From positions 62,001 to 126,000 of the forward strand of contig JBBHKE010001618.1 in the NCBI GenBank assembly GCA_037447655.1: DNA of 64,000 nt, read 5' to 3'. Shown one piece after another: positions 1,480 through 42,179 of the stretch (position 1 is its first letter; each line of letters begins with the position of its first letter). The DNA comes from Zygnema cylindricum (Eukaryota > Streptophyta > Zygnematophyceae > Zygnematales > Zygnemataceae). The translations under genes were made by a program, and so were the position numbers. Below the pieces are notes generated by a model. The model searched no databases and had not been told where the DNA came from. It saw nothing but the letters and a program-made list of their open reading frames with translations.

Positions 1480-2330
1480 AGAAGATGACAGACCGAAATT
1501 CAAGGTAAAGCATCGTCTATCATAAACTGAATGGGAATCCGTAGACAAAAGATGCGCAAAAATAAAAGAGGCAGGTCTGCTTTATAGGTCCGATTCCACT
1601 TTTGCGGCGCCCACCGTCATGCCTCGTAAAAAAGATGCAGAGGGGAATTTTACAAATTGTCGCATGTGTGGGGACTATCGAGAACTAAATTCACGTATAA
1701 TCTAGGACCGACATCTAATGCCGTTGGCAAAGGACATTTTTAATCATGTAGGAGGAGCTTAATATTTTAGCATCCTAGATTTGCAACAAGGGTTCAATCA
1801 AATCGAAATAGAAGGAAAAGATCAACACAAAACTGCATTTTGGGGTTGTGATAGATGTTGGGAACGGGCAATTATGCCTTTTGGAATGAATAATGCACTT
1901 GCAGTGTTCCAGCAGGTCATAGACTCAGTCTTGAGGGGATGTAAGTTTGCCCGTTGCTATATCAATGATTTAAACATCGCCTCCTCCACTATTGAGGAAC
2001 ATGCAAAGCATATAAAGTGGGTGTTGAAGGAATAAAAAAATGTAGGACTGAAATGTCACTTTGCCAAATGCACCTTCGAGGCCGAAGGAGTGCCATATCT
2101 TGGGCATTTTATCTCATCTGAGGGAATTACCTCGCTATAAGTCAAACTCGAAGCTATTAGTAAACTATCGGCTCCAATTGATTGACTAGCTTCGTGCATT
2201 CTTAGGATTAGCTAATTATTAGCGGCGGTTTGTTCCTAGTTTCAGTACACTTGCATCTTCATTGAACAAACTCTTCAAGAAATCAATCTTTTTTCGCGTG
2301 GGGACCCGCTCAGATCAAAGCTTTTCAAGG
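1480..2330 (+). pseudogene. Gypsy reverse transcriptase, degraded
   Basis: Translations show the RT landmarks RMCGDYRELN, LDLQQGFNQI, the MPFGMNNA block and a catalytic-box remnant CYINDLN. The expected Y-x-D-D reads YIND, so the second aspartate has been lost or shifted. Several stops interrupt the frame, for example one in the segment after ELNSRII and one in the GGA..YF segment. The longest uninterrupted piece is 1781-2035. It cannot make an active RT. Confidence 0.85.
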
Positions 2331-3515
2331 ATTAAAGAATGCGCTGTCCACGGCCCCCATTCTCCGACTTCAAAATAATAAATTACCATTTTGCCTACAG
2401 ACTGACTTCGGTAAGCCCGACACTGCGGCCATCCTATCTCAACCCAAACTCACAGGTGAGGAATATGTGGTGGCTTATGCGAGTCGAAGCAATAATCAAG
2501 CGCAATCAAATTACAGTAGTTACAAGGGAGAACACCTTGCCGCAGTTTGGGGTATCGTGCATTTCCGACATTATCTCTATGGCAAGCCTTTCACCTTTCT
2601 TACTAACCATCAACCATTGCATTGGCTTATGACCAATGACAAGGTGTCTGGCAAATTAGCCTGTTGGGCTCTTATTTTACAAGAATATGATATAGAAATA
2701 ATCCATCGACCCGGGCTCCTCTGTTTGAATGTTGACGGGCTCTCCATGAACCCTTTGCCCCACTCGGTTGATAACGCTGTACGAGAGGATTTTGATGGCA
2801 AAAGAGTGGTCGCCTTATCGGCTAGAGCGCATCTGATTTACAGTTTTGTAGCTCCCTCAACTCACAAGATCGACCACGGTTCATGGCGGGACAACACTTT
2901 GATTCGCTTTCTATCTACTCAGTCTTTTCTAGTGGGCACCCTACCAACAGAAGAGGGGTTTGTTCGTAAGAGATCTCAAAGCTATTTGCGGATGGGTGGC
3001 TCATCCATTTGTCTTCTAGCAGACGGGAGTGATCAGCATGTTCCCCGGCCGACAAAACGATTATCACTCATTAACTAGATCCATACTGATCTTGGACATT
3101 ACGGCATAAAACGGACTCTGAATTTGGTACAGGCGCGTTATTGGTGGTCGGGCAAGCAAAGCCGACATGGCGTCAGTATCGCAAGAATGCAGTACATGCG
3201 ACCGGTTACGAATCTTGTATTCTAACCAGTAAACTACACTTCAACACTTGCCTATTCAGGGTCTCTTTTAGAGGTGGTCATGCGACTTGGCCGGACCCTA
3301 CTTAATCTCTCAAAGGGGCAAGCAATACATAATGATTATGATCGAGAATTTGAGCAAATAGGTGGAAGTTGTCACCCTTTCGCATAAAACAACCAAACTT
3401 ACTACTGCAGTTTTTAAGGAACACGTGCTCCTCCGATATGGAGACCCCGCGGAAGTTCTTACCAAACAAGGAATCGAGTTTTGGGGCGACTTCTAGGAGA
3501 TGTTGGACGAGGCAC
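2331..3515 (+). pseudogene. Gypsy RNase H and integrase N-part, degraded
   Basis: 2467-3078 is open and encodes the gypsy RNase H region (VVAYASRS, GEHLAAVWGI, FLTNHQPLHWL, HRPG..LNVDGLS). A decayed zinc-binding segment and an integrase core follow (MIMIENLSK, EVLTKQGIEFWGDF). The second catalytic aspartate of the usual TDQGSEF box reads TKQGIEF, so the active site is broken. The coding sequence halts at AGGCACT (3510-3516), where the solo LTR begins, and resumes at 4608. Confidence 0.8.
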
Positions 3516-7583: not shown

Positions 7584-7587
7584 ATTC

Positions 7588-9035
7588 TGTCGAGCGTGCC
7601 CGAGAAACACAAGGGAAAGGCCCGCTGCCCGGAATGGCCGGTCTCGGCGTCCTGCAAAGAACCCACCAATGCTAATGCTTCCTATAGTAATGATTATGCC
7701 CACTGATGTCCCCATCCCTCCAAATAGGCATGCATGCACGGGTAGGGAATAGGGATGAGTGCATGGGAAGGCGAAAAGATATCCCCTCCCCCCTTACCTT
7801 CCCCATTAAGCCGGGGAAAGGGGTTGGGTTCGCGGTAATCGGGTCGGTGCTCCAATTTCGTGCTTCATCCACAGGAAGTCTATAGCATTCGTTCCCTCAA
7901 AACCCACTGTTTTGATGCCAAGAAATTGCAGTTTTACTCCGGGAAGTCCCCGCCAAAGCAAAAGAGACTACAAGTGAAGACACAAACGCACTACCACGTG
8001 GACATAGAAAAATAAATAGGAATGGCTGTTTCAGATTTAACAATATCACCTTGACCACAGAAATAAAATATAAGATGGAAGATTTCAAAGATGGCGAAGC
8101 AAGCTTAACCTACCCCGGTAATTTACGATGACAATGGGAGAAAGGCGAAATCTCTCCTGATGGCAGTGTAAATAGGTATGGTACTCCTTCAACCCTCGGT
8201 GTCCGCAGCTCAGAACCAACAGTACTCTTCTCAGTTTCAAGCAGCGAAAAATCCAAAAATCACCCAAAGTGGTGGTAGTGCCAACCACCAGCGCGAACTA
8301 TGATTCCCAAAATGGACAAATCCAAAACAGAGATGGCAATAGAGTCAAACAACACAAAGATTCTCCAAAAGAAGGTTTGTTGGAATTTATGAGGGTTTTC
8401 ACAGGAGACAGTACTGAAAAGAAACCTGTCTCCTTCGGCCCCAAGCGCCTTATACATCAAAGTTTGTCCAAAATCAGGTCCAAAAGTCAAACCTACGCTA
8501 TCAGCCAATGAGGGACCAGCAACGGCAATCAAACTGACATAAGACAAAATAATGTGTACTACTCTTGGGGCAAAAAGTTGGACCTCTGACCACGGCTAGA
8601 TTCGCGGCCGGAAGTTATTATTTCTTCCACAGTTTTTAAGACAAAGTACTAAAAAGACACGTAAGTGCCAAGCTTTGACTTAATGTAATTAATTAACCAC
8701 TGGTCAACTGAATCTGAACTGAATTGCTACAGACAGCTAACAGCAAAATCTAGATTACAGTCCGGAAGTCTACGTGGCAATCCACAATGTACCCTCCACT
8801 AGGGCTGGTGGAAGCTAGTACTATGTGACGGAACTGCGATCTTTTAGACGGTAGAACTTTGTCGTCCAGCCTCCGTTAGGCACGAAACAAAGTGCGTCTT
8901 GTTCAGTAGAGGAAATCTTCAATCCTTCCACCAGATTGCGCTGGCTTCTCCGTAATTTGAGAATAGTACGGGTCGGAAGGGTACGGAAATCCTCGGTAAT
9001 ATAGAAGTGTGCCTAAAAAGCACTTGAGCTTGACA
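7588..9035 (-). repeat. Gypsy terminal repeat, parts A and B (element 3' end)
   Basis: On the element strand this begins TGTCAAGC (9035) and ends GCTCGACA (7588): TG...CA with imperfect short inverted ends, as in an LTR. Part B (7860-9035) is a close direct copy of 19174-20324, which lacks about 30 bases found here near 8115-8145. Part A (7588-7859) is a close copy of 9038-9307. No gene; small frames inside are incidental. Confidence 0.7.
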
Positions 9036-9037
9036 GC

Positions 9038-9307
9038 TGTCGAGCTTGCCCGAGAAACACAAGGGAAGGGCCCGCTGCCCGGAATGGCCGGTCTCGGCGT
9101 CCTGCAAAGAACCCACCAATGCTAATGCTTCCCATAGTAATGATTATGCCCACTGCTGACCCCATCCCTCCAAATAGGCATGCATGCACAGGTAGGGAAT
9201 AGGGATGAGTGCATGGGGAAGCGAAAAGATCTCCCCTCCCCTTTATTTTCCCTATGAAGCCGGGGAAAGGGGTTGGGTTCTTAGTAATCAGGTCGGTGCT
9301 CCAATTT
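9038..9307 (-). repeat. Extra copy (A') of terminal repeat part A
   Basis: A 270-bp direct copy of 7588-7859, starting TGTCGAGC and ending CCAATTT, two bases (GC) from the end of part B. Just beyond it lies C7 (9308-9314), which on the element strand makes a polypurine tract (AAGAG followed by G7), a plausible plus-strand primer. The resulting order, internal region then A', B, A, is not that of a normal two-LTR element. Confidence 0.75.
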
Positions 9308-9347
9308 CCCCCCCTCTTAGTCAATCGTGACTAAGAAAAAGAAACAG

Positions 9348-10178
9348 TTACCCGCCCAATTCACAGTTCCCGCAGAACCATGGACTGGGGGATGGAGGGT
9401 GTGGTTCCCATGAGGAGGGTAGACAAGCTGGATGCCAGTACTGCCCGCACTGATGGCAGACTAAGATTTCGTGCTGCTGGGAGGACAAGTTGCAGGATGA
9501 TGAACAGGAAGGAGGATCTGCAAAGTAAGTCAAATGGAAAGTGGGGTCGTCTTCTAATCCTCGGAGGTGACAAGGGGCCACATTGATTTGATTCTCTTTA
9601 ATTCTTCGCCCATCTTTCCCCTCCAAAGTCAGAACTCCCTTATTTGAAACTTCCACCACTTTTAAGATTACCCGCCCGGCAGAAATGTCAAGCGTGTCCT
9701 TTTTCTGTTGCATGCGATACACAAAGTCTCCCGGCATAAATCGTCGCTGTCGGGGCACATAATCTCCGCTCCGGCGATGGGAATACCACAATTGATCCCG
9801 GTGTTGTGCCGCCTGTAAATTCCCCATGGCGAGAGGCATCTCCCGGTGGAAAATTTTGGCACGGTCGGCGATCAGTTTTTCGACAGTTCCCTTGTCATCC
9901 ATTGCCGGGAGGACCACAGCTTGGGCAGAGGCAGCCCCAGGCAGAATGGGATGTCGTCCGAATAAAATGAAGTAAGGGCTGTAGGAGTGAAGAGAAGCCT
10001 GTCTGCTGAATCGGTATCCCATGGCAATCCAAGGCACCCTTCGGTCCCACTCTCCCAAGTCCTCTTCAACTGCATATTTCCGTAGTGACCGCTTCACTGT
10101 CTGTACGCACCTTTCGGCCAAACCTTCGGCTTGGGGGTGGTCGCGGCTGGTAAGTTAATGGTCGATGAGGCATTTCTC
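9348..10178 (-). pseudogene. Gypsy integrase C-terminal half with terminal PHD finger
   Basis: Open from 10121 to a TAA at 9348 (257 aa). It starts at the catalytic-glutamate region (HPQAEGLAER just upstream, then CVQTVKRSLRKY), runs through a long C-terminal domain with GDFVYRMQQ and VLTLEGKDGRR, and ends in a cysteine-rich module at about residues 206-253. The spacing there is C-x3-C-x11-C-x2-C-x4-H-x2-C-x16-C-x2-C, with a WFCGNC ending: a PHD finger (C4HC3 class, two zinc ions). PHD fingers usually read histone H3 tails; a role in integration targeting is inference. Upstream in the same frame a TAG and a TAA (about 10160-10178) separate this from the integrase core, so the enzyme is interrupted. 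Confidence 0.85.
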
Positions 10179-11441
10179 CTAAAGATTGGTAAATTCTACG
10201 GCGAATTCCGATCCCTGGTCGGTCAGAACCTCTGCGGGCGCCGCAAACTGTGACAGGACTCTCAGCAGAAAGGCGTCGGAAATGAACTTGGACTCCTTTC
10301 GGGGCAGGACCACAAGCTCTATCCATTTTGAGAAATGTTCAATCATGACCAGAACGAAACGATTCCCACGTCTGCTGGTCAAAAGAGCTCCCAAAAGATC
10401 CAAAGACCACTTATAAAACATTCCCCTGATGGGAAGAGAATGGAGCTCAGTCCCGCCATTTTTGTCAAAAGATGCCTTAACTCGATCGCAGGAAGAGCAA
10501 GTCTGTACAATTCGCTTGACTTGGTCCCGCAACGCGTGCCACCAGTAAGAGCCTGTAACCAAGGAAGTGGTTCGCTTCTTTTCGAAGTGTCCACATTGTT
10601 TATGGAGATTGGTAATCAAAGTTTCTCGATCTGAGGGAGGGGGAACCACTTTCCTAGTACTGTCTGTCCATTTCCGGAGGAGCACTCCTCGGTCCCACTC
10701 ATACGCCGCCATCCGGGTCTGAACTCGGGATAATGGAATTCCAGCCAAGTGGGGAAGAGGGGATCCCTGCTGAATAGATTGGAGAGCTTCGGAGTCATTC
10801 CAAATGTCTTTCCGTCCGGCTCCCATGGGGGCCTGCCCCTTTACATCTGCTGCAAAAGTTGACAATTCCCCCCCAGATGGAAGAAGCCAAATGAAGGCGG
10901 AGGATGCTCGAATGAGTCCCAAACTGATTTCCGGATCCTCGTCGTGCCGAGCCCCGGTGGAATCCAGGGTCGAAGGATCGGGGTTTCGGCTTAGTCCGTC
11001 GGCATTCCCATGAATTTCCCCTGCCCGGTGGACAATGCTGAAATCATATTCCTGCATGATAAGAACCCATCTGGCGAGTTTGCTGGTCAACTTACTATTT
11101 TCCATGATCCACTTCAAGGGTTGGTGATCGGTGATTAGTGTGAAATGGACCCCGTACAAATAAAGCCTGAAATGCTGGATGGCCCAAACCGCGGCAAGAA
11201 GCTCCCCATGATAATTGCTATAATTTCCCTCAGCTCGGTTATTGCTCCAGCTGGCGTAAGCCACCACATACTCGGCACGTGCGTCGTCAACTTGAGCCAA
11301 AACAGCTCCCAATCCAAACCTGCTCCAATCAGTGTAAAGGAGGAAAGGCCTCTGGTGATCAGGCATCCGGAGCACTAGGTGCTGCTTCAGGGCATCCTTC
11401 AAGAATTGGAAAGCGATCTGCTGTTCCTCGGCCACTGCCAT
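10179..11441 (-). pseudogene. Gypsy RNase H, zinc-binding domain and integrase core
   Basis: 420 residues. RNase H comes first (LLYTDWSRFGLGAVLAQ, YVVAYASWSNN, GELLAAVWAI, LITDHQPLKW, HGNADGLSRNP). An H-x3..H..C-x2-C integrase zinc domain follows (HKQCGHF..., CSSCDRVKA), then the integrase core with DLLG and VLTDQGSEF, giving two of the three catalytic acids. The frame runs into TAG after FTNL, and the third catalytic residue lies just beyond in the same frame. It overlaps the RT frame by about 40 bases in a different frame; a one-base indel near the WQW segment explains that. Apart from these defects the domains look complete. Confidence 0.9.
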
Positions 11442-12265
11442 TCTTGATCTTTCCGTAATAGCTTATTGAGGGGCTGGGCGTGACTACTGAACTCGGGAAT
11501 AAACCTGCGATAGTAGTTAGCCAGGCCGAGAAAGGTGCGCAAGGCAGAAATGTCCTGCGGGGGAGGAAGAGCGTCGAGGGCTGCAACCTTCACCATATGG
11601 GGACCCAATGTCCCAGGAGTTACCTCATGTCCGAGGTAAATGATTTTCTGCACCCCAAAAATACCCTTGCCCGGGTGACATTTCAAGCCCGCTGCTTGAA
11701 GAGCCCGGAGAACGATCTGGATATGCTCCAGGTGTTCTTCAAAGGTCTTGGAAAATATTATCACATCGTCGATGTAGCATTTGGCACAATCGATTCCTCG
11801 GAGCGCTTCGTCCATGGCCCGTTGGAACTTTGCTGGTGCATTCTTCAGTCCGAAAGGCATGTAAATCCACTCATAAAGTCTGGATCCGGCCCAGAATGCC
11901 GTTCTCTCCCGGTGTTTTGGTTCCATGGCAATCTGGTGGAAACCATTCTTCATGTCCAGTGTGGAGAAAATAGTGGCCCCAGCGAGAGAGTCGAATATCT
12001 CTTCCGGAGTTGGCATTGGGTACCGGTCAGGAATGGTGGCCGTGTTCAACATGCGGTAGTCCCCACACATTCGGAAGTCCACAGTTTTCCCGGATGAATC
12101 CTTCTTAGGAGGGAGAACTGTGGGGGAAGCAAACCCATGGAGTCCGGTACTTTCCTGAACCAACCCTGCGTCCACCAAAGTTTGAACCTTTTCAGTAATA
12201 AACTCTTTCTCCTTGAAGCTGAGAGGATATTGTTTCTGCCAAACCGTTGCGGTTTCGTCGATCAA
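11399..12265 (-). pseudogene. Gypsy reverse transcriptase
   Basis: 288 residues with all main RT blocks: FRMCGDYRMLNTATIPDRYP, FSTLDMKNGFHQIAM, YMPFGLKNAPAKFQRAMD, the catalytic YIDDVIIFS, and the thumb with ALRTFLGLANYYRRFIPEF. The catalytic aspartates are intact. Upstream it is in the same frame as the DNMT, separated by TAG (12368) and a TGA at about 12282 within the DNMT-RT linker. At the 3' end a frameshift displaces RNase H. Only the flanking lesions argue against function. Confidence 0.9.
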
Positions 12266-12367
12266 ATCTATCCGAAAGGGGGTTCATTTGTAGATTCCGA
12301 CGTCTGTTTCGGACCATGAGAAAACCTGAGTGTTTCTAGCCAAGAGTTCTGTTAGCTGTTCTTTCTG

Positions 12368-13834
12368 CTACGGGTCCAGCTGCTCCCTCAGAGTCCAGTC
12401 CATTTTTCCCGGCTCAACCGCAACCCAAGCTTTCGGTGGTCTTCCCCAGAGGTTGATGTCGAATTCTAGCCCAACCTGTGGATCTGCCTCTATTCCTCCG
12501 GATAATACTTTACTGCCGACAACTTTTGCTATGCTGTCTCCTTCTAAGCTCCCCCCCGCTGAAGGAACTCTCGGGTGTAGATTTTTTCTCTTTTCTCTCC
12601 CCCCCTCAAGCTGCAAAGTTGCTTGCATGGACAGTAACTGTGGAGCTTGAAGGTAATTTCTGCGTGAATCTGGAGCGTGGAGATTGGAATAGGCAAGAGC
12701 ATTCTTTACAACCCATGTAATGGAATTTAAATCCATGCTTTGACCTATGAGGCTGCACCGCTGTAGGTCTAAAATACCTGGTGCTGCCGTGGTTTCCGGA
12801 TGAAACCCCATTGCCTGTTCTCGTTCCGATATGGTTGGTGCTGTCCATAGTCTTTCCTTGCTGTCAAAAATCATTCCAGCTGCTCCTTTCCGGTAGGCGT
12901 GACTGTGAGGAAAAGATACCAACGTGGGTAGTGCTCGACGTGGGAATCCGGGGGTATTGCATTGGAAAAATGGAGTACGATCAGGTTTGGTTACAGGTGT
13001 CGACATTCTTCCTTTCCCAAGTATCTGCTGTACTGAAATCTGGGGGTCGGGGGTTTGTTTCTGCAACAGTTGATGGAGGACTGGAAGAGGGATCATATTG
13101 GTCCAATATGCCCGCAGCCTGTGCGCTCGAGATCCCATTTGAGCAGCGTCAAAAACCAAGGGAGCTTCCAGAATACGAGTTACCTGATTCCAACTTTCTG
13201 CAACCTGCTTTCGTTTATCATCCCCCGGGTGGACATTCTCCAGAATATACCCCACTGGTGTGTCCTGGAGCTGCTGAATCCACGATATCAATGTAATCAT
13301 CCGATAGAAGGTTCCACTGCGGCGATCCTGATGTCCTCTTCCTTGTCCAGCTAGGGAGTATCCCTGACAAGGCCATCCCGCCACAACCAGATCTACTCTT
13401 CCCAGACTAGCTAAATGCGGTGCCATTATATTATCCACATTCTGGGGAAGACTTCGGTGAGCTGTGGAAATGGAAGACACTGGAAGCTGTTGAGGGTATA
13501 GGCGGTGGAGTTGATGTAGGCGGTGTTCGCTGACAGCTCGAGCTTCTGGTGAAATTTCCACTGCTGTGTATGACTCCACCCGATACCCTGCCTTTAGAAC
13601 TGCTTCCAAATCAGAACTGATTCCCGAAAATAAAGATAGAATCCGAAGTCCGGAGTCTGGGACTGTCAATGACACCACTTGTCGATTAAAGTCCCCTCTT
13701 CCAGTCTTGGTTTGTAAAACATCTGACTGGATCGTCGAATCTGTTTCGGTAATTGTAAGGCCGAGAAGGTTTGATCCACTCCCCGCCGAAGTTTCCCCCC
13801 CTTCAATAATCTGTCTGTGTATTCCCTTTCCCAC
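12368..13834 (-). CDS. C5-cytosine DNA methyltransferase within retrotransposon pol
   Basis: 488 residues with no internal stop. S-adenosylmethionine-dependent transfer of a methyl group to cytosine C5 in DNA is expected. Motif I is LSLFSGISSDLEAVLKAG (about 66-83), motif II has an acidic residue in AVEIS (91-95), motif IV is AGWPCQGYS with the catalytic Cys at 156, motif VI is LENV (198-201), and motif VIII is GSRAHRLRAYW (234-244). A recognition region with PTLVSFPHSHAY follows, then SEREQAMGF and LIGQSMDLN as motifs IX-X. The order is canonical, not permuted as in plant DRM; the GSRAHR block recalls the DNMT3/DRM clade, but that placement needs a tree. The last 100 residues are a linker into RT in the same frame. 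No UBA, BAH, chromo or PWWP domain is visible. The start codon is a guess, as a frameshift from the protease frame is also possible. Confidence 0.92.
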   Translation of the reverse strand: MGKGIHRQIIEGGETSAGSGSNLLGLTITETDSTIQSDVLQTKTGRGDFNRQVVSLTVPDSGLRILSLFSGISSDLEAVLKAGYRVESYTAVEISPEARAVSEHRLHQLHRLYPQQLPVSSISTAHRSLPQNVDNIMAPHLASLGRVDLVVAGWPCQGYSLAGQGRGHQDRRSGTFYRMITLISWIQQLQDTPVGYILENVHPGDDKRKQVAESWNQVTRILEAPLVFDAAQMGSRAHRLRAYWTNMIPLPVLHQLLQKQTPDPQISVQQILGKGRMSTPVTKPDRTPFFQCNTPGFPRRALPTLVSFPHSHAYRKGAAGMIFDSKERLWTAPTISEREQAMGFHPETTAAPGILDLQRCSLIGQSMDLNSITWVVKNALAYSNLHAPDSRRNYLQAPQLLSMQATLQLEGGREKRKNLHPRVPSAGGSLEGDSIAKVVGSKVLSGGIEADPQVGLEFDINLWGRPPKAWVAVEPGKMDWTLREQLDP

Positions 13835-13854
13835 CGCTTGGAAATCGGGAATTG

Positions 13855-15729
13855 CTAGATGTCTTCGGCAATATCTGTGGAACTGTCAAACAACTCCGCC
13901 GGAGAGGTGGTAGAATACACGGGGTAACAGCCAGACACCGGAACATTTGTCTTTCCCCGGTTCCATAAATCCAAAGGAACCACAACTTTGGTTCCTTCGG
14001 GATTTCCTGGGTCCTGAACTGTACATTGCTCCTTCCAAACACTCAAACTCATATTCATGCGGGTCCAAGTTGCCATTCCCAACAGAATTTCAAACTGATT
14101 CCCTTCTACCACTAAGAAAGGAAGTCTAATTTTCACCTTCTGTCCCGCATCATCTGAGAACTCAATGTCCATGGCTTTGATGATTCCATGGACTGGCTGA
14201 TTGCTGGTGCTAACTATGCTCAAGCAGATGTTACTCGGGCAGATCTGGGGTCTGAGTTCTTCCGGCATTTTCTGCAATGCAGAAGTAGTAATGAGGTTGG
14301 GAAGTGCTCCGGTATCAACCACAGCGTCTTGATACCCGCCGTACCCGTTCAGTTTGAAATTCCCTGTCCGGTTCAGAATGAGTGCTACGGACAAAGTTAT
14401 GTAGTCCCTATCCGCCATAGGGGTCTTAGGATCTGAAGACAAGTATACCGCCGTGGGTGGTGTCACCCTGTCGACTTTGTCTTTTCCAGAATGGATCTCT
14501 TCTCCCAGGGCCTGAATGAGGATCTCTTTTGGCAGATTATGGGAGGAAGCAAGGGTCTTGACATGGGTCAAGGCATAAGGCATCAAATGCCGGACCAGCA
14601 TAACAGCAAGCTTGGAGGAATGGAGCGGAGCTTTTGAGGAGGATGTAGGCGAAATTTGTTCCTGATCCGGTTCTATCTCTTCGTTGCCATCAGTTTCAGA
14701 ACCGGAATCGGGTACGGGTGGAGTTTTTGGTGCATCCTCGTCCGGGCGTTCGGCCATAAACCGCTCAAACCAATCCTGAGTGCTCTGTTTGTCCTCTTCC
14801 TGTGATTTTGTCTCCGGCTGCAGTTTCTCTTTCCTGTAATTTTCGAAACCGGTAGGCAATTTAGGTTGAGTAGGAAGAGGAGGGGGTTGAGTGGGCTTGA
14901 TCCCAAGGCCTATGTCATTGTTCAGAATGACTGCCCTGGGCGTGAAGGACAAAGGCCTGGTGGCCTTCCGGTTGTGGTCCTTTGGAACCATTTTCCGCTC
15001 GTCTCTCCTTTGATCCGAGGTTGAGGAGCGGAGTTGTCTTCGACCATCACCCACTCCAACATTCCAGGCTCCGTGCAGGAAATTGCTGGCATGGTGGGCA
15101 TTTGGGGGTTCCAAATCCCAGCCCATCATATCGTCTTCGTTAGCCCCCGATGTACTTTGAAGCTCAAGCTCCGCTAGCTTTTGTAGTAACTCTTGCTTCT
15201 GTCTTTGGAGTCGTTGCGCTGCCGTAAGTGGAGCAGGCCGGTAAGTCGACCCCAATCGAAGTGCAGCCAATTCTGCCGCCATGGCAGCCATCTGCTGACT
15301 TTGTTGTTGGATTATTATCTCCAATGTAAGTCTGACTGGAGCAGTCGTTAATTGTTCCGGTGTCACTGGTGTAAGCAGCACTGGGCGCTCCCAAGGGTAA
15401 AGGAGTTGTAGGGGAAGAGGGTTAACGGCAGTCTCTCCTCCTCCCGTGAACAGAGCAAATTGCATCATTTCCTTCGGGATCCCGTTCTTCCGGAAACATT
15501 GCCCCTCCTTGTGCCCCATAAAACCACACGCCTCGCATTTGTGACCCTCGGTGGTATACTTGCTCCGAATCTCGTTGGAGATCTGAGCATCGTCGAACTT
15601 GGGCAGTTTGATTTGCCGCAGTTGGGACTGGGACATTTTCGAAGTTTCGCTCCGTGGAGTGGGTCGGTAATTGTTCTTAGTGACCGGTGTTCTCTCCCCC
15701 CCCCCCAGCTCCTTTGAGTCGTTCTTCAT
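13855..15729 (-). CDS. Gypsy Gag C-terminal zinc knuckle and aspartic protease
   Basis: 624 residues. Near residue 65 is a canonical CCHC knuckle, CEACGFMGHKEGQC (nucleic-acid binding in nucleocapsid). A long Gln/Pro-rich stretch follows, with LAALRL coiled-coil-like sequence. Around residues 475-575 is a retroviral-type aspartic protease with the catalytic VDTGALPN and the later LPFLVVEGNQFEILLGM box. It overlaps the end of the Gag frame at a run of eleven Gs (15696-15706) in a different frame. It ends at TAG (13855), about 20 bases before the first Met of the DNMT frame. It would release Gag, DNMT, RT and integrase from the polyprotein. Confidence 0.85.
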   Translation of the reverse strand: MKNDSKELGGGERTPVTKNNYRPTPRSETSKMSQSQLRQIKLPKFDDAQISNEIRSKYTTEGHKCEACGFMGHKEGQCFRKNGIPKEMMQFALFTGGGETAVNPLPLQLLYPWERPVLLTPVTPEQLTTAPVRLTLEIIIQQQSQQMAAMAAELAALRLGSTYRPAPLTAAQRLQRQKQELLQKLAELELQSTSGANEDDMMGWDLEPPNAHHASNFLHGAWNVGVGDGRRQLRSSTSDQRRDERKMVPKDHNRKATRPLSFTPRAVILNNDIGLGIKPTQPPPLPTQPKLPTGFENYRKEKLQPETKSQEEDKQSTQDWFERFMAERPDEDAPKTPPVPDSGSETDGNEEIEPDQEQISPTSSSKAPLHSSKLAVMLVRHLMPYALTHVKTLASSHNLPKEILIQALGEEIHSGKDKVDRVTPPTAVYLSSDPKTPMADRDYITLSVALILNRTGNFKLNGYGGYQDAVVDTGALPNLITTSALQKMPEELRPQICPSNICLSIVSTSNQPVHGIIKAMDIEFSDDAGQKVKIRLPFLVVEGNQFEILLGMATWTRMNMSLSVWKEQCTVQDPGNPEGTKVVVPLDLWNRGKTNVPVSGCYPVYSTTSPAELFDSSTDIAEDI

Positions 15730-16402
15730 GTTGCTTCTGGTTCCTCTCCGAACGTTCTATCTCCCATTCTTTCAACTTGAGGGCTAGCTCCGGTTTGAGT
15801 GTCCTGCTGCAGCGTTTCCATCCATGTCCAGGTTGTTGCCAATTTAGGCAATTGTACAGAATCACCCGATCGTCGGCCCCCATTGCAGGTTCTGGCCCGC
15901 TGTCCACAACTTGCTTCCCTTTAAGCTTCCGCAAAGCTTGGAGTTCCGCTTGTTCTTCCCCACTTAAGGAAGTTTCCCCGGCGAATCCTGAAAAATTCGC
16001 TCTTGCCTTGCCGGTCACGGCAATTTCTCTCGCCTCACTGTGAACAAAGTGGTCGTATAACTTCATGGCCACCAGGGATATGTCCTTGGCCGAGGGATTT
16101 ATGTCCTGGATGGCCTGTCCTGCGATCCAGTTATCCAGGGCAGTCTGCCCTGTCGGTCCGAAGGAATTACGGACAGCAATGAAATACTTTGTCGCCATTG
16201 CGGGAAGGTCAATGGTAGACAGCTTAGTCTTCTGACAAAGACTAGAGAGGCGGTTAAAAAGTGTCTGAGGCGTCTCATTCTTGAAACACCGGAATTTCGT
16301 GAATTCCTTGATAGCTGACTCATTCCTCTCGGTGTAGAGGAGTCTCCAGATGTTTAGAAGAGTGGTGCAAGGGGTGGGATTTGCCACCATACGAGTCGCA
16401 GC
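15677..16402 (-). pseudogene. Gypsy Gag capsid-like region with damaged zinc knuckle
   Basis: 237 residues from Met at 16390, continuing the upstream Gag frame after TAG at 16403. The segment LNIWRLLYTERNESAIKEF, then LFNRLSSLCQKTK, resembles a retrotransposon capsid (UBN2/Retrotrans_gag type). A zinc-knuckle-like motif C-LNWQQPGH-GWKRC lacks the second cysteine, which reads Trp. The frame ends at TAA (15677) after running into the G11 tract, where the protease frame takes over. Confidence 0.75.
15696..15706 (-). promoter_or_regulatory. G11 homopolymer at the Gag-protease frame junction
   Basis: Eleven Cs on the plus strand, so eleven Gs in the sense strand, lie exactly where the Gag frame (ends 15677) and the protease frame (opens 15729) overlap. 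Many LTR elements express Pol by ribosomal frameshifting in such an overlap. A mutational or assembly slip in the homopolymer would look the same. Confidence 0.35.
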
Positions 16403-19089
16403 CTAGGCTGACTGAATTGCTTGCAGCTGGTTAACATAGGCCCTCCCTTGGGCCTGCAACTTCATATCATTGGTGAAGGTAGCTGTTACAGGGGTCGCCG
16501 CTGCGGCAGCCAAATCTGCCTCCGCTCGTAAAACTTCAGCATCCAGGGCCGGATCTGAGATTTTGATGCTTGGAGCCATCAAGAGAGGTTGACGCTCCTT
16601 ATAATCTGCCAACGCCCCTCCAGAGAGGTAGTTGACCATCATGGGAAAGAGAGTTGTTTCGAAGTTGTCTGGAATAGCTCCTCCCCTGTAATTATTGATT
16701 TCCGATTGAGTGAAAGATTTCCACAACAACTCTAAATCTGAGAAAGCGATCCCTGAGCTGTCCCCTGTAAATATTTGAATATCCCCCATTTCTTTCTCTT
16801 CTTCCGCTGGTTGGGTGAACTGGGAAAAGGAAAGGCCGATGGGACTAACGAACTGTGCCGGCGAAGTAACCCCTTTGTCCTCCTCTTCGGGACCGGAACC
16901 GCCTTCTCCTCCGGTAGGAGATGCTGTTCTGCTAGGCGCGGATACTCCTCCCGCAGAGGAAGTACCAACCCCTGAAAGGATGGTTGGAGGAAGGGTATTC
17001 CTCACGGGAAGAATTCCTGGCCCTTGGGGAGCAGAGGGTATTTGCGTCTGAAGACTTGACTAGCCTGGGGTCGCAAAAGGAAGGGCCCACTCCCCTGCGT
17101 CCACTCCTCGATATCCACGGGAATACCTTTCGTCTTGACGAACTGTCTCCTCTGAAGGGATGTGGATCCGAGGTCTGTTCAAAGGTTGATCTCCGGGCAG
17201 AGATGGAGAAGAAGACGACGAAGGTCCGTTCTGAGGAGAAGGAGTTTGTCTTCGAAAAGGAGTCTGTTTCCGGGGCTGTCTTCGAGAGGTTTCAGGAGGT
17301 GGAGTTCCGGAACTAGAGGAGGGGAAACGCCTGTGAGGAGGGGAGTATACGTCGTACTTATAGGGTAAATTCAGCGGACCTGGGGACCCACGGTCGGCTT
17401 CAGTAAGAGAAACAAAAAGAGATGGAGAGGAGATGGGATTGTCCCGAGGTTTTGCTGCCGGAGCCTCGGAGTGGGAAGTAGGAGGAGGAGGAGGGAAAGG
17501 AGGAGGATCACGGGACAGTCTGGGTGGAGGAGAAGGAGGTGTAGACGGTCTCAAGGGGATGTGAATTCTTTCGTCCGGTCGTAACTCCACTAAGGCCTCA
17601 ACAGCTTCAAAAACCTCCACCGAAACAAAAGAAGGCTCTTCCCGCGGAGCCGCTTCGAGTTCAGACGGTAAATCTGCACCCAAACCCCCAATATTAGGTC
17701 TTGTGTCTACCCCCTCTTCTCGCTGAAGAGGAGGTTCCTGACCAATCTCCGAAGGAGGAGCCTGGGGTGGAGCTTCGGGCGGGGTTTCCGCTACTGGTGT
17801 TGGAGGGATCCGCCCACTGAGGATCCCACTGGACCTCCGCCTAGCTTCCCGGATGAGATTCTATTCCTGCTCCCACAACTTCCTCCGTTCTTCCTCCAAC
17901 GCTTCCCAATCTACTGTAACGGGTCCAGTCCCCGCCGTAGCCGAGCCCTGAGATTTTAAAATTTCCACTAGTTCCTTAGCCCTTTCCACTACTCCGGTCA
18001 GATCAGCTATCCCTGCTCCTAAAATTTTTGGATCTGTAGGCCTGGCTCGAAACAATCCCTCGGACAACTCTTCTGGTTCGGTTTCCGGAACCTCTGGGTC
18101 AGTGGGTTTGGGTCGCCAGAACCCTCCATCAGGGCGGACCCGGGGTGCCGGAGGGGTAGATCTCTCGGTGGAGACTGGCACTGGCGTTGGGGAAGGTTCT
18201 TCCTTGGGAATAGGTGCAAATCTACCCTTGCTATCCCTGTGGTCAAACTTCTTCCCCCTCCCCGGCTCTGGAACCCCGCTATCGCTGCCACCTGCTCTCC
18301 TACGAGACCTCGAAGCTGGGCGCCCCCGGGACGGTCGGCTTGCTGCAGTGTCTTGGGAAGAAGATGGAGGAGGGCGAGAAGGAGGAGCCCTCCTGGGCCG
18401 TTCCCGCAAGGACTGGGAGGAACCACTCTCTGAAGAGCTACTTAGAATCTCCACTACCCCTCCCACTGGTTTAACCACCCGAGGTCGATCCGACCGAGAC
18501 ACTCTTTGCACCAACTCCTGCTTAACCTTCAGTTCATGAAGATCATGAAGAGCAAGGAGTTCCTTTCGACCAGGGCGGCTGGGATCCGTCAAAACCGCAG
18601 GGTCAATCTGAATTTCGGCCCTGGGAATCTTTGATCTGGTGTGAAGCCCGACCTCCGGAAGGGGACCCAAAAGGGGCTCCCGCTGAGCTTGCCTCTTTGG
18701 CCTGGCCCGGGGTAACACTCGGTTTCTTTCTTGAGCCTGTGCTCTGGACTCCTTTCTTTCCTCGGCAAAGGTTCTGGAGGCCTCCGCCAAGGAGGGAAAA
18801 TGTTCAGAGTGAGGCTAGGAGGAGATGGGGGCGAAGTTTGTGGTTCGGGTGGTTTTGGAGGAGTTTCAACCCTAACAGGTTCAGGCATCATCCCCTGGAG
18901 AAACCGCTCTATGTTGGCAGGCGAGGTAAAGGGGATGGATTCTTCGGGAACCTGTGACTCTTCTTCTGATACCAAAGCTTCTTGATTCGCCTGTTCTTCC
19001 GGCCTAGCACCGGAGAGATTCTTATCTGGAGCTTCACCTCCCCCCATGATGACGAAAGTCTCGAAAGAAAAATTAACGACAGGGCACAA
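16403..19089 (-). pseudogene. Gypsy Gag N-terminal, Pro/Ser/Glu-rich region
   Basis: One long frame (18790 down to 16403) broken by TAG codons at 17861 and 17060 and ended by a third at 16403. A different frame (19089-18589) supplies the likely start, MGGGEAPDKN at 19047 or an upstream Met. The protein is low-complexity: PPRLSRDPPPFPPPPPTS, SRSRRRAGGS and charged stretches, consistent with a disordered Gag N-terminus. The last 150 residues (LLWKSFTQSEINNYRGG onward) look folded. I cannot assign any other function. Opposite-strand frames here follow from its Pro/Ser codons and are not genes. Confidence 0.65.
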
Positions 19090-19173
19090 TACTCGCTTCC
19101 GCCAAGAGAGCTTCTAAAGTCAAAAAGCTACTATCCCCTCTAATCCGAAGGAGACAGGTCGCTTTTCAGTACT

Positions 19174-20324
19174 GTGCTTAATCCACAGGAAGTCTATAGC
19201 ATTCGTTCCCTCAAAACCCACTGTTTTGATGCCAGGAAATTGCAGTTTTACTCCGGGAAGTCCCCGCCAAAGCAAAAGAGACTACAAGTGAAGACACAAA
19301 CGCACTACCACGTGGACATATAAAAATAAATAGGAATGGCTGTTTCAGATTTAACAATATCACCTTGACCGCAGAAATTAAAATATAAGATGGAAGATAT
19401 AAAAGATGGCGAAGCAAGCTTAACATACCCTGGCAAATCTCTCCTGATGGCAGCGTAAATAGGTATGATACTCCTTCAACCCTCGGTGTCCGCAGCTCAG
19501 AACCGACTAGACTCTTCTCAATTTCAAGCAGCGAAAAATCCAAAAATCACCCAAAGGGAAGGCAGTGCCAACCGCCAACCCGAACTATGATTCCCAAAAT
19601 GGACAAATCCAAAACAGAGATGGCAATAGAGTCAAACAACACAAAGATTCTCTAAAAGAAGGTTTGTTGGAATTTTTGAGGGTTTTCACAGGAGGCAGTA
19701 CTGAAAAGCAACCTGTCTCCTTCGGCCCCAAGTGCCTTATACAGCAAAAGCTTGTCCAGTTCAGGTCCCAAAAGTCAAACCTACGCTATTAGCCAATGAG
19801 CGGCCAGCAACGGCAATCAAACTGACATAAGACAAAATAATGTGTACTACGCTTGGGGCAAAAAGTTGGACCTCTGACTACGGCTAGATCCGCGGCCGGA
19901 AGTTATTATTTGTTCCATAGTTTTTAAGACAAAATACTAAAAGGACACGGAAGTGCCAAACTTTGACTTAATGTAATAAATTAACCACTGGTCAGTTGAA
20001 TCTGAACTAAATTGCTACAGACAGCTGACAGCGAAATCTAGATTACAGTCCGGAAGTCTACGTGGCAATCCACAATGTACCCTCCACTAGGGCTGGTGGA
20101 AGCTAGTACTAGGTGACAGAACTGCGATCTTTCAGACGGTAGAACTTTGTCGTCTAGCCTCCGTTAGGCACGAAACAAAGTGCGTCTTGTTCAGTAGAGG
20201 AAATACTTCAATCCTTTCGGCGGGTTGCGCTGGCTTCTCCGTAATCTGAGAATAGTACGGGTCGGAAGGGTACGGAAATCCTTGGTAAGATAGAAGTGTG
20301 CCTGAAAAGCACTCGAGCTTGACA
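19174..20324 (-). repeat. Gypsy terminal repeat, part B' only (element 5' end)
   Basis: Close direct copy of 7860-9035, ending TTGACA next to ATTC. Part A, expected between here and gag if the LTR is B plus A, is absent. Instead TGGATTAAGCAC (element strand) leads towards gag; it begins TGG as primer-binding sites do, but I could not match it to a known tRNA 3' end. Confidence 0.75.
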
Positions 20325-20328
20325 ATTC

Positions 20329-24058: not shown

Positions 24059-25115
24059 TGAAACTGTGAGACCTCCATAAGTCCTCAGAGTGGACAGCTT
24101 CGAAGAGCCTCTAGGATAACTTTGACCCCTTTGTGTTTCAGCGAAAACAACTGCCTCCCTGGCAGACAAAAACTATGACCACCTGAACTCTTGTGAAGGC
24201 AAGACTCCCCTGAGTCTATAGCATAATGAATCTCTGAATTTGCTTCCTTGAGCAGTAAGTTATGGAGGGTCAAAGTTGACCTTTTGTACAAAAGCTCTCT
24301 GGGAGAGAGGGTCCTATCTCCTAATTTTTCTAAGTCCTATCTCTCTCACAGACTCTATCAACTGATGTACGGAACTAATCAGGTTATAGTTCCGTACGCA
24401 AAAGTACAGCTGCCGTTGTACTTTATGTACAGACATTGTACGACATGGCCTAAATGTCAACACATGTCATATCCGGATTCGGTGCCATAATCTCCGGAGA
24501 TTCCACGATCCAATGTAATTTTGCCACTTGTCATTTGATGTGGCGATGGCCACAAACCGCCAAAATCTTCTTCCGCGATCTCGGCGCTAATTTCGGCAGT
24601 CCGATTAAATTCGGATTTAATCGTAGCCGTAATAAATACATGCGCGATATTCGTTTCACTTAAGAAATTAATGCGCGGTATTGATTTCTTGTCCGTACCG
24701 TAATCCGTACTTTATACATTACCGGATCTATGTATCCCGTAATCAATTACTGTTAAATGATTTATCCTACGTATACATATTAAAATAAATATCAAACTAT
24801 ATAGTACGTAACACTAGTTCTAGAGTTAACGGCTAAGGCTGTTGGCTATTTACTATCTACCGGCCGGTAGGTACAGGGATCAAATCTTGTGGCCGGCACA
24901 TATCTTTAATATAAAATAAACCCCTAACTAATATAAATTTCACGTAAACCTCTGGATAGCCTAGGTAGCCATGGCTCTAGCTCCCTCTCCAATTTCTCAG
25001 TGACTGCGACAATTTTGAGAGTTGGAGAAAGACGTTAGAGGTAGACTGCCTCAACTTCTTTCTATATTTCTATTTAGACCTAGAAAATACTAAAAATGGA
25101 CCATTAATTTCTACA
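24059..25115 (-). repeat. Copia J 3' LTR
   Basis: 1,057 bp, TGAAACTG...TTTCTACA on the plus strand, so TGTAGAAA...CAGTTTCA on the element strand. Nearly identical to 29472-30523. Confidence 0.9.
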
Positions 25116-25128
25116 CTCCTCTTATTTT

Positions 25129-26612
25129 CTAGTCAATCTTTAATTTCAGACCGCACTTCTCCCTGCAGAAAATTAGCTTAAGGGAAGGAACAGGTTTGGT
25201 CATCATATCTGCTACCATCTCACTATCTGGTCTGTACTCTAAACTGATTATTTTTTTTTCTACTTTCTCTCTAACAAAGCTGAGTCTGATGTCCATGTGT
25301 TTGGCTTTAAAATGATGTTTAGGATTGGCAGAAATAGCGATTGCTGCCTGATTTTCACAAAACATTTTCTGCACACCACTCTTAAGGTGACCAAGCTCAC
25401 TAAGCAAAGACTTGACCCACATCAATTCTTTTACAACAGAGCAAGAGGCCATATACTCAGCCTCCATTATGGACTGAGCAATAACCTTTTGTTGTTTGCT
25501 ACTCCAACAGCAAGCCCCATCACCCACATATAATACATATCCAGAAGTGCATCTCCTCATCGGAGCATCACTATAGATGGCATCACTCCAAGTAGTGATG
25601 TCGGTATTCTCCCCACCCAAATACAACCATAGATCCCTAGTTCCTATCAAATATCTAAGGACACTCTTAGCTGCCTCCCAATCCTTCTTAGTGGGAGCAT
25701 TTAGACTTCTACTCAGCACTCCTACAGCTGCAGCTAAATCCGGCCGGGTACAATTCATAAAATAGATTAGACTTCCCACTACTTGCATGTAAGGAATAGT
25801 CTACATGAACTTCTGTTCTTCAAGAGATAATTCCTCGTCTAAGACTATGACTCCTTCTTCCATACTCCCCTCACTTCCCCTCTTCAACTCCATTGGAGTT
25901 GTACAACTATTAGCTTTATCCATTTGAAATTTTTCAAGCATGTTCCCTATTTGCTTTGCTTCTTTTGAGTCAGTCTTATAATTTTTCTTTTTCGGTCTCT
26001 CTCTACTTGAATTCCCAAAATATATCTTGCTTCCCCCATATTCTTCATTTCAAATCTCCCCTTAAGATCGGTTTTCAGTTTATTAATTTTTTCCATTGAT
26101 TTACTTAAAACAAGCAAATCATCAACACAAATTGCAATAAATATAAAACCTTCCTCATCTTCGAAAACATAGATTGAGTGATCTGAGCTGATCCAAATAT
26201 ATCCCAGACCGGTAAGAAACTCATCAAGCTTCTTATTCCATTGTCGAAGCGCCTGTTTCAAACCATAAAGAGATCTAATCAGCCGGCATACCTTACTCTC
26301 CTCTCCTTCCTCCACAAAACCTTCGCGTTGTCGCATGAAAATCTCCTCTTCCAATTCTCCATGCAAAAAGGTTGTCTTGATGTCCATCTGGTGCACTTCC
26401 ATGTCTTCCGCTGCTGCTAAACTGAGAAGTATGCCGACGGAGGGAAATCTGACCACCGGGGCAAAGGTTTCCTCGTAGTCAATTCCCTCCTTTTGTGTAA
26501 ATCCCTTTGCCACTAATCTGGCCTTGTAACGCTCGATTGTGTTATCTGGGTTCAGTTTTAATTTGAAAACCCACTTACAACCGATTGGTTTCCGGTTAGG
26601 TGGACAATCCAC
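25129..26612 (-). pseudogene. Copia J reverse transcriptase and RNase H
   Basis: Two open blocks. 25947-26612 is RT ([51 protein letters not shown], catalytic box ICVDDLLVLSKS). The usual YVDD reads CVDD: both aspartates remain but the tyrosine is replaced. 25129-25788 is RNase H (LIYFMNCTRPDLAAAVG, DITTWSDAIYSDAP, SGYVLYVG, QSIMEAEYMA, KHMDIRL), ending just before the polypurine tract. A short damaged stretch with stops (25789-25946) separates them. Confidence 0.9.
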
Positions 26613-26618
26613 CAGCTC

Positions 26619-28327
26619 TCAAGTATCAGCTGCCCTGATTGAGGCCATCTCCTCATTGATGGTTGTCTTCCACAGGTTTCTTTTTGGACAAGTCATAGCC
26701 TCACCATAAGTTTGAGGTTCATCTTGATGAGATAGTTTTGTTACCTTGTTATTAACCTGTTTTTCTTGCAATCTTTTGCTACTTCTCCTCCCCCCCTCAA
26801 AATCTGAGGCCGGAATAGATGGTTCTCGTGGATTCTTTCGAACAAACTCAACTTCTCCCCTATCCTTTGATTTCGAATCAATTCCCACCATGTCTTCCGC
26901 TTTGGGTAGAGTTGTCACTGGAGTTTCCACAGCCGAGTCCTTTTCGGTCTGATTTGTACCTGCAAGAATGTCATCATCTCTAAAACATGGATAGTTTGAA
27001 AGCTCAAAGTCATCGGAATTTTTTGACTCAAATCTGATTTTTACTGACTTCGTATATTTGAAGGGATCCACAGACTTTCCTTCATCCATAACTACTAGAT
27101 GCTTTACTAAGATTATATCTTCCCTTTTTAGATCATAAACTCTATATCCTTTAAAATCCTCATGATATCCTAATAAGTATCCCGGTTTTCCTTTAGGATC
27201 TAGCTTCCAATTGGACCGATCAGTATCTACACTGAATACTTGACTGCCGAAAACCTTTAAGTGAGATATGTCTGGTTTCCGGCCTGTCCATCTCTCATAA
27301 GGTGTTTGGTCTTTTATAGCTGAAGTAAGAACTCTATTTTTGAGGTAATTAGCACAGTTCATTGCTTCTGCTCAAAACCTTTTTCCTATCTACTTATCTG
27401 ACAACATACTTCTAGCACTATCACTTAGTGTTCTATTTAACCTTTCACCTACCCCATTCTGTTTCGGGTTTTCTGGGACTGTCTTTTGGTGATGGACCCC
27501 ATCTTCCCTCAAAAAATCCTCAAACTGGTTAGAAGTATACTCTCCACCATTGTCACTCCATATTCTCTTAATTGGAGTTTCATGGAGTTTTTCGCTCCAT
27601 GCTTTATATCGTCTAAAACAATCCTGAGCTTCTGACTTGTTTTTCAAAAAATACACCTGGGAATACCGAGACCAATCATCAGTGATAGTCATCATAAATC
27701 TCTTCCCCCCTGGTTAGGGCACTTAAGCCAGTCCCCAAATATCTGTGGGTACTAGATCTAGAATTTTTTCTCCCTTATAAGTGGTTGTTTTAGAAAAAGG
27801 TAATCTGTGTGTTTTACCTTGAGCACATCCACTACAATCACTTATATTATCATTCTCACTGAACTAAATCCCTTCCACCACTCCCATTTTTTTCATTTCT
27901 CTTAACTTATCTAGATTCACATGCCCAAGCCTGTTATGCCACATCATAATATCATGAACACCAGCATAATAAAGTTTCTTCTTTTCATTACTTAAAACCA
28001 GCCTAAACATCCCATGGCTACCTTTCTCAGCAATGAAATAGACATCCTCCTCAAAACTAGCAGTAAATTCTCCTTCCCTAGTGCTAGTAAAAAAACCCTT
28101 ATAATTTAATACAGATGTAGAGATGAGGTTTTTGTTCAGCTCCGGAATAAACAATACATCGGAGAATGTTAATATGGATGCCTTTCCTTCTACTAACACT
28201 TTCAGATCTACCGATCCTACAAGAGTAGTGGTGACTATCCTCCCATCCCCGTACTCTATCTCTACGGTGGGAATATTTCTTATCTTAGTGAACAGGTCCC
28301 TATCCTTACACATGTGCATGGAGGCAC
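26619..28327 (-). pseudogene. Copia J protease and integrase, with lesions
   Basis: 27864-28319 holds the protease remainder and the GAG-pre-integrase block (MWHNRLGHVNLDKLREM). 27390-27695 is the integrase core with all three acids in context (TITDDWSRY, WSDNGGEYTS, NGVGERLNRTL). 26619-27362 is the integrase C-region. At 28319-28332 the protease catalytic triplet is split: WIVD is in one frame and GASMHM in the next, so an indel breaks the D-S-G motif. Further stops lie at about 27720 and 27365-27390. Confidence 0.85.
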
Positions 28328-29407: not shown

Positions 29408-29456
29408 GCTTTCCCACTATATGAAGCATGTTCCATTAAAGATTTATACTCTTGAG

Positions 29457-29471
29457 GGTGGGCCCATAACC
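29457..29471 (-). promoter_or_regulatory. Copia J primer-binding site, half-tRNA iMet type
   Basis: The plus strand reads GGTGGGCCCATAACC, directly abutting the 5' LTR. This is the anticodon stem-loop sequence of plant initiator tRNA-Met (CAT anticodon inside), not its 3' acceptor end. So minus-strand synthesis would be primed by an internally cleaved tRNA, as known for Drosophila copia, yeast Ty5 and Volvox Osser. Confidence 0.8.
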
Positions 29472-41880: not shown

Positions 41881-41988
41881 TGCAAGCATAGTTGTCCCGT
41901 GCGCATAATACGCACGAAACGAAGGAGCGAATACTACGCACGATAAGCATTTAACGATGAAAAAAATGTTATAAAATGCGTACCTGAC
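41775..41988. repeat. Near-perfect 214-bp palindrome
   Basis: Arms of about 106 bases read GTCAGGTACGCATTTTATAA... inward and their complement outward, with one mismatch and a 2-base indel. The centre is GCTTGCAAGC. It arises because like ends of E1 and E2 (GTTGTCCCGTGCGCATAAT) face each other. Confidence 0.95.
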
Positions 41989-42179
41989 TATTTACCAGTA
42001 CATATTCGTACATTTACGTACTGTCTTCGTACATTTCAGAACTTTTAGGATTATTAAGGGGGTTTGTGGAATTTTAGGGTGCATTCTCGTGCGTTCTCAT
42101 ATGTTTCTATTAAACAGCTAACTTTTATTCGTACAATTGCGTACAGTGTCCGTATATTTCCATACACTTCTCCACACCT

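What the first reader, a model, noticed from the sequence alone, without database searches (positions are those of the whole stretch)
12368..13834. Full-length cytosine DNA methyltransferase inside gypsy pol, between protease and RT
Seen: an uninterrupted 488-codon frame with DNMT motifs I, IV (PCQ, Cys156), VI (ENV), VIII and IX-X, collinear with Gag-protease upstream and in the same frame as RT downstream. Known: retrotransposon capture of DNMTs has been described in dinoflagellates and charophytes. Inference: the element may methylate its own cDNA or the host genome de novo, either masking itself or turning silencing into a tolerated state. DNMT is free of stops while Gag and integrase carry several, hinting at later decay or selection on this part.
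Basis: partly seen in the sequence, partly recalled or inferred. Interest (0 to 1): 0.92.

Follow-up and report, generated by a model that had tools for sequence, protein, structure and literature searches.

The report
Plant retrotransposon carrying a DNA methyltransferase
A worn copy of a jumping gene from a green plant carries its own DNMT3-type DNA-methylating enzyme inside its replication protein; this combination is known from one alga, but the copy and its relatives also suggest an unusual, circle-based way of inserting into the genome.

Summary
On the minus strand, 12371-13885 is an open frame for a DNMT3-type cytosine methyltransferase between protease and RT of a 12.7-kb Ty3/gypsy-type element (20324-7588) with a 4-bp target duplication, inserted in a Copia RT gene. 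The DNMT is out of frame with protease and two stops part it from RT, so this copy is broken. Its lack of stops is not special: the protease frame is equally clean.

The kind is published (KnitGypsy-Dnmt3, Klebsormidium, 2018). Added here:
- A PHD finger ends the integrase, as in 103 of 120 listed relatives.
- Relatives hold the DNMT at two Pol positions (PR-DNMT-RT, RNaseH-DNMT-IN); some show none.
- The repeats are A-int-B-A-B. A self-complementary primer site abuts A and a purine tract abuts B, so the reverse-transcribed LTR should be B+A; yet insertion used the internal B|A junction, whose palindrome GACAGCTGTC recurs in the 3 relatives that could be checked.

I infer a circular cDNA opened by a DDE integrase. 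The DNMT most likely methylates this cDNA; that is untested. No sister copy could be examined.

The parts
7588..20324 (-). whole element, 12,737 bp, TGTCAAGC...GCTCGACA
   Evidence: repeat map; ends; flanks join into an in-frame Copia RT
20325..20328 (.). target-site duplication GAAT, 5' side of the element
7584..7587 (.). target-site duplication GAAT, 3' side of the element
19174..20324 (-). repeat A1 (5')
   Evidence: 93-97% identical to A2
9037..9308 (-). repeat B1
   Evidence: 93% identical to B2
7860..9035 (-). repeat A2
7588..7859 (-). repeat B2 (3' end of element)
   Evidence: abuts A2 with no gap
9032..9041 (.). B|A junction palindrome GACAGCTGTC, proposed integrase site
   Evidence: same 10-mer in L011, L012, L013
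9309..9318 (-). polypurine tract AAGAGGGGGG abutting B1
19144..19173 (-). primer-binding arm abutting the A1 end, complementary to A1 sequence
   Evidence: 29 of 32 positions; folds as a long stem
19695..19726 (-). proposed self-primer arm near the RNA 5' end, 16 nt after a TATAAG
15680..18814 (-). Gag-like frame broken by three TAG stops
   Evidence: no Pfam match
13858..15756 (-). C-terminal Gag and aspartic protease, stop-free
   Evidence: Asp_protease_2 E 0.009, below the Pfam cut-off; PR-DNMT order supported by P0002
12371..13885 (-). DNMT frame (confidently modelled fold about 12686-13678)
11402..12283 (-). reverse transcriptase
   Evidence: RVT_1 3.9e-29
10182..11462 (-). RNase H, integrase zinc domain, start of rve core
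9351..10154 (-). rest of integrase and C-terminal PHD finger (about 9363-9506)
   Evidence: PHD 8.1e-5, just under the Pfam cut-off (23 vs 24 bits); its eight zinc ligands are invariant columns of the 17-sequence alignment A3

Best explanation
A decayed copy of a Ty3/gypsy-type retrotransposon of a green plant whose Pol carries a captured DNMT3-type cytosine methyltransferase between protease and RT and a PHD finger after the integrase. Proposed cycle: (1) RNA starts in A1 and its 5' end folds back to prime at the site abutting A1. (2) Reverse transcription gives B+A LTRs, because the purine tract abuts B and the primer site abuts A. (3) The ends join into a circle; the A2|B2 border is that joint. 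(4) The DDE integrase opens the circle at the internal B|A palindrome and inserts A-int-B-A-B with a 4-bp duplication. (5) The DNMT, made with the RT complex, methylates CG sites of this double-stranded cDNA before insertion. Shown: domains, repeat order, ends, duplication, conserved palindrome. Inferred: the circle, self-priming, and the enzyme's substrate and activity.
For: Domains. DNMT3-type fold. Kin with the same neighbours: P0001, P0002 and the Closterium protein P0005, and L011 with protease-DNMT in one frame and RT-RH-IN-PHD in the next. Repeats and ends. Primer arm and purine tract. Palindrome in the window and in 3 of 3 testable relatives, 0 in 152,344 control bases. L011 shows the same TATA, primer-arm and PBS order. 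The published K. nitens element has a DNMT in Pol and DIRS-type repeats, and some retrotransposon DNMTs methylate CG de novo in yeast.
Against: The K. nitens gypsy DNMT itself gave no methylation in yeast (inconclusive by its authors). Related PHD elements L012, L014 and L015 show no DNMT in the DNA held, so not all need it. L011-L013 are collapsed or partial contigs, so the full A-B-A-B order is seen only in the window. For L012 only a 12-nt arm that fits the self-primer layout poorly was found, and for L013 none. This copy is broken and was not compared with sister copies.
Confidence: 0.6

Rival explanations
1. The DNMT acts on host chromatin, not on the element's cDNA: the PHD finger guides the integrase complex to chosen nucleosomes and the DNMT silences the target region.
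For: PHD is annotated in 103 of the 120 listed integrase relatives (the query included the PHD). The PHD of one relative (P0033) is closest by sequence to a list that includes CHD4, DPF3, PHF12, KDM5 and BHC80 PHDs, several of them readers of unmodified H3K4 (recalled).
Against: The DNMT is fused upstream of RT, or between RNase H and IN, which favours cDNA; the window's own PHD is divergent; relatives without a DNMT keep the PHD.
Confidence: 0.2
2. The DNMT no longer works as an enzyme and is kept as a structural or nucleic-acid-binding domain, or is a passenger.
For: The K. nitens gypsy DNMT was inactive in yeast, though DNMT3B was too; some relatives show none.
Against: In 26 aligned sequences Glu216 of ENV and Ala254-His255 of motif VIII are invariant, and Cys173, Arg256 and Arg258 at least 90% conserved; the published K. 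nitens copies show Ka/Ks < 0.2.
Confidence: 0.2
3. The repeat order arises without a circle, by a DIRS-like templating of both ends or by a rearranged but conventional linear cDNA.
For: The same repeat order occurs in DIRS-group PAT elements; no circle was observed.
Against: The purine tract and primer site abut B and A exactly, and A2|B2 is an exact end-to-end joint; the nine minus-strand frames scanned hold an rve integrase and no tyrosine recombinase, and there is a 4-bp duplication, whereas DIRS1-like insertion leaves none.
Confidence: 0.25
4. Chimera or contamination.
For: GC differs from the flanks.
Against: Target duplication, in-frame empty site and independent kin with the same neighbours.
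Confidence: 0.02

Closest known systems
KnitGypsy-Dnmt3 of Klebsormidium nitens (de Mendoza et al. 2018, PMC5890265; abstract and sections 6, 7, 9, 10 and 11 read, plus word-search passages)
   Same: Dnmt3-related domain in gypsy Pol. Repeats said to be those of a DIRS element, which the paper's legend for SymbioDIRS gives as A-coding-B-A-B.
   Different: The main text has no mention of PHD. The sections read give no target duplication, primer site or junction for it. Its DNMT sequence was not obtained, so kinship is untested; a K. nitens IN-PHD protein (P0030) is 44% identical, and whether it belongs to that element is unknown.
SymbioDIRS-Dnmt3 and DIRS/PAT elements (PMC5890265 as above; PMC3266345 and PMC4157794, passages only)
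   Same: Direct repeats in the same A-int-B-A-B order (SymbioDIRS, PAT), methyltransferase in Pol.
   Different: They use a tyrosine recombinase; DIRS1-like insertion makes no target duplication. Here there is an rve integrase and a 4-bp duplication.
Chromoviruses (Ty3/gypsy with a chromodomain; search listing only)
   Same: Chromatin-reader-type domain at the IN C-terminus.
   Different: PHD finger instead of chromodomain in the window; one listed relative, P0140, is annotated with both.
Tf1/sushi self-primed elements (recalled)
   Same: RNA 5' end complementary to the primer site next to the 5' repeat.
   Different: Longer arms here; plant and algal hosts.

Membership tests
Ty3/gypsy (Metaviridae) | PR, RT, RNase H, then zinc-H2C2/rve integrase | tested here: met
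   (protease match weak)
Ty3/gypsy (Metaviridae) | short target duplication and TG...CA ends | tested here: met
   GAAT, TGTC...GACA:
Ty3/gypsy (Metaviridae) | element bounded by plain LTRs | tested here: not met
   A-int-B-A-B instead; gypsy-type by its domains, not a conventional LTR layout
DNMT3 | sequence and fold closest to DNMT3 | tested here: met
DNMT3 | motif IV PCN (recalled; DNMT3A letters) | tested here: not met
   PCQ
DNMT3 | ADD/PWWP domains in the same protein (recalled) | tested here: not met
   one search shows PF00145 only in this frame; PHD is at the other end of Pol
KnitGypsy-Dnmt3 | Dnmt3 domain inside gypsy Pol | tested here: met
KnitGypsy-Dnmt3 | repeats arranged as in a DIRS element (A-coding-B-A-B) | tested here: met
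KnitGypsy-Dnmt3 | sequence kinship of the DNMT | tested here: inconclusive
   no protein named as K. nitens among the hits; only an IN-PHD compared
DIRS | tyrosine recombinase | tested here: not met
   rve integrase and no recombinase in the nine frames scanned; 4-bp duplication
Chromovirus | chromodomain at IN C-terminus | tested here: not met
   PHD found, no chromodomain

The most novel reading that the evidence does not exclude
A whole green-lineage clade of PHD-bearing gypsy elements integrates from circular cDNA: the DDE integrase opens a circle at an internal palindrome (GACAGCTGTC) rather than joining LTR ends. DNA methyltransferases are acquired by such elements because the exposed circular DNA needs marking, the same reason DIRS elements carry methyltransferases.
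Probability: 0.35. Interest if true: 0.85.

Novelty: new variant of a known kind. Interest (0 to 1): 0.62.

Why it matters
The 2018 paper reports retrotransposons with their own DNMT, the enzyme used to silence them, from two lineages. This case extends the gypsy type to another host, probably a land plant, and ties the enzyme to a chromatin-reader domain and an odd repeat order. The conserved palindrome makes a concrete, testable prediction: a DDE integrase acting on a circle. If DNA methyltransferases go with circular cDNA in both tyrosine-recombinase and DDE elements, their unexplained presence gets a common cause; Ngaro elements, which have split repeats but no methyltransferase, and the relatives here without a DNMT are a warning against a strict rule.

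Tried and rejected
Phage or bacterial origin of the DNMT: 10 viral loci encode Dcm-like enzymes sharing the VAGWPCQ stretch (my reading). Motif VIII, the PDB profile ranking and the fold point to DNMT3, although HhaI is only 4.5 Z units behind. In the tree the 6 phage rows used (of 10) separate at 98; DNMT3A is a long branch there, so the tree does not settle the parent gene.

Selection on the DNMT: no sister copies, so no Ka/Ks. Simulation (mean 6.8-8.9 stops and indels expected at d 0.03-0.04) finds the clean DNMT frame unexpected, but protease is just as clean. I reject a DNMT-specific signal and doubt the clock: the A and B copies may have differed at insertion. Its indel rate (0.1 per substitution) is a guess; one search showed 6 gap runs and nine gap openings, against 88 substitutions.

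Stop-codon read-through between DNMT and RT: L011 has UAG CAA UCA between two long same-frame ORFs, like the tobamovirus leaky-stop context (recalled). The window's TAG CAG lies at a different place, and the in-frame stop seen in L012 lacks the context. Left as a lead.

Layout trees: labels were given by eye (10 rows I, 12 rows II, 13 unassigned). In one search a rule classed 34 of 98 rows beside the window (26 direct, 8 with DNMT between); 64 cut rows were not counted; one change of layout was needed. In the IN tree the 14 rows marked II lie inside one 44-row group, mixed with rows in which no DNMT was seen, many of them too short to tell.

A second viral scan, with the integrase, found none. 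Rfam: no match at the gathering score in window or L011. VIA-align lists only Foldseek's top chains. Pfam found nothing in 10 further window frames.

Full report
What is there. The element lies on the minus strand from 20324 to 7588. Its Pol order is protease, DNMT, RT, RNase H, integrase, PHD finger (the protease match is weak). The DNMT frame (13885-12371) shares its frame with RT but is cut from it by a TAG and a TGA, and from protease by a frame change. The frame's first Met is after motif I. Across 18814-9351 I count seven in-frame stops and three frame changes, so this copy is defective, although one frame change could be natural. Five of the seven stops are TAG.

Relatives. Three searches gave 6, 25 and 217 proteins; each scored only about 8,000 candidates, and of the last only the best 120 were listed, so these are partial lists. 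P0001 has DNMT and RT in one frame (43% identity over 87%), P0002 protease and DNMT, P0005 is from Closterium. A second layout puts the DNMT between RNase H and integrase (P0017, P0026; P0018 and P0022 show DNMT before IN-PHD). In the DNMT tree the 12 rows given that layout by eye plus one unassigned row form one group (SH-aLRT 100). Among the 34 rows beside the window whose layout a rule could read, one change of layout suffices on the IN tree; 64 cut rows were left out. Of the 120 listed integrase relatives 103 are annotated with PHD, but the query held the PHD. Organisms named in that list are Klebsormidium nitens, the liverwort Calypogeia fissa, Haematococcus lacustris and a Spirochaetia metagenome bin, the last presumably contamination. 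L012, L014 and L015 have PHD but no PF00145 match. L014 and L015, near-identical, cover the DNA well upstream of RT; L012 starts close to RT, so a DNMT upstream of it is not excluded. The DNMT is thus not universal in the clade.

Repeats and insertion. A1/A2 are 93-97% identical and B1/B2 93% (K2P 0.064 and 0.070). The ends TGTCAAGC and GCTCGACA sit between GAAT duplications, and the joined flanks read through as Copia RT...SNHSIYLFEDEN|GVIFIGIYVDDLLVL (identified as Copia RT by its YVDD motif, by eye). A segment of about 30 nt that abuts A1 is complementary to A1 sequence just after a TATAAG (29 of 32; none of about 200 shuffles reached it; long stem, fold z -3.0 with 20 shuffles). A purine run AAGAGGGGGG abuts B1, and A2 abuts B2 without a gap. 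By ordinary retroviral logic (established knowledge) primer site and purine tract mark the LTR borders, so the LTR would be B+A, and a circle of two such LTRs opened at one B|A site gives A-int-B-A-B. That reading is inference.

Conservation of the junction. The 10-mer GACAGCTGTC at B|A (9032) also occurs at 7051 in L011, 4611 in L012 and 2785 in L013, each downstream of pol and of a G-run. It is absent from L001-L010 (152,344 bases), from L014 and L015, which end within 160 nt of pol, and from L016, a distant element. About 0.0025 would be expected by chance in 2.6 kb of even composition. L011 has a DNMT and L012 shows none, so the junction need not depend on the enzyme. L011 also has a TATA, a 13-nt arm 29 nt later and its complement 364 nt after the palindrome (fold z -2.7). 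In L012 only a poorly placed 12-nt arm and in L013 no arm was found, so self-priming is supported in two elements only.

Host. Repeat copies differ by transitions at 16 of 108 CG, 20 of 136 CHG and 21 of 419 CHH sites (Fisher p 0.001 and 0.0005 against CHH); a Copia element in the window shows 9 of 79, 9 of 75 and 3 of 205. CpG ratio in the element is 0.67, against 1.05 in 30.5-64 kb. This is the mark expected of plant-type CG and CHG methylation; it does not show that the element's own enzyme did it. A legume-lectin-type ORF also points to a plant. The species is unknown, because the genome search did not complete.

What is known. De Mendoza et al. 2018 (PMC5890265; abstract, sections 6, 7, 9, 10 and 11, and word-search passages) reported Dnmt3 in a gypsy Pol with DIRS-like repeats in K. 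nitens, Ka/Ks < 0.2, and no activity of that domain in yeast (inconclusive, as human DNMT3B also failed) while SymbioDIRS DNMTs methylated CG. DIRS papers PMC3266345 and PMC4157794 (passages only) describe circular intermediates (the first), split repeats and methyltransferases. PMC12477816 (two passages) concerns another methyltransferase in a Sola element. My searches for gypsy DNMTs, PHD gypsy integrases, self-primed, circle-integrating or split-repeat elements and later work on KnitGypsy listed no other paper that I recognised as reporting these points. Apart from the four papers named here I saw listings only; PMC12344493 holds one of the names once and was not opened, and subscription papers are not held.

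Verdict. Real, DNMT3-type, and of a published kind. The PHD finger, the two layouts and above all the conserved internal junction are what is worth following.

Noticed in passing
window 40459-45101: Inverted arms of about 1.2 kb (783 nt of them 99% complementary) around and overlapping a 737-aa frame with an RVT_1 match.
   Followed up: no
window 24106-30382: Copia element with about 860-nt LTRs that shows the same CG and CHG decay.
   Followed up: partly
window 48392-49003: Legume-lectin domain frame, a likely host gene.
   Followed up: partly
window 39653-40228: Array of 48-bp tandem repeats.
   Followed up: no
L011 3489-3491: UAG CAA UCA between two long same-frame ORFs (gag-PR-DNMT and RT-IN-PHD): possible programmed read-through that would put the DNMT at Gag level.
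   Followed up: partly
L011-L015: GTDB genomes titled cyanobacterium, Mollicutes, Halorubrum and Halanaerobiaceae hold gypsy-type contigs, apparently eukaryotic contamination.
   Followed up: partly
window 17863, 17062, 16405, 12370, 10181: Five of seven in-frame stops are TAG, as CHG-methylation decay of CAG would favour.
   Followed up: no
window 2266-3075: RNase H of another gypsy-type element on the plus strand.
   Followed up: no
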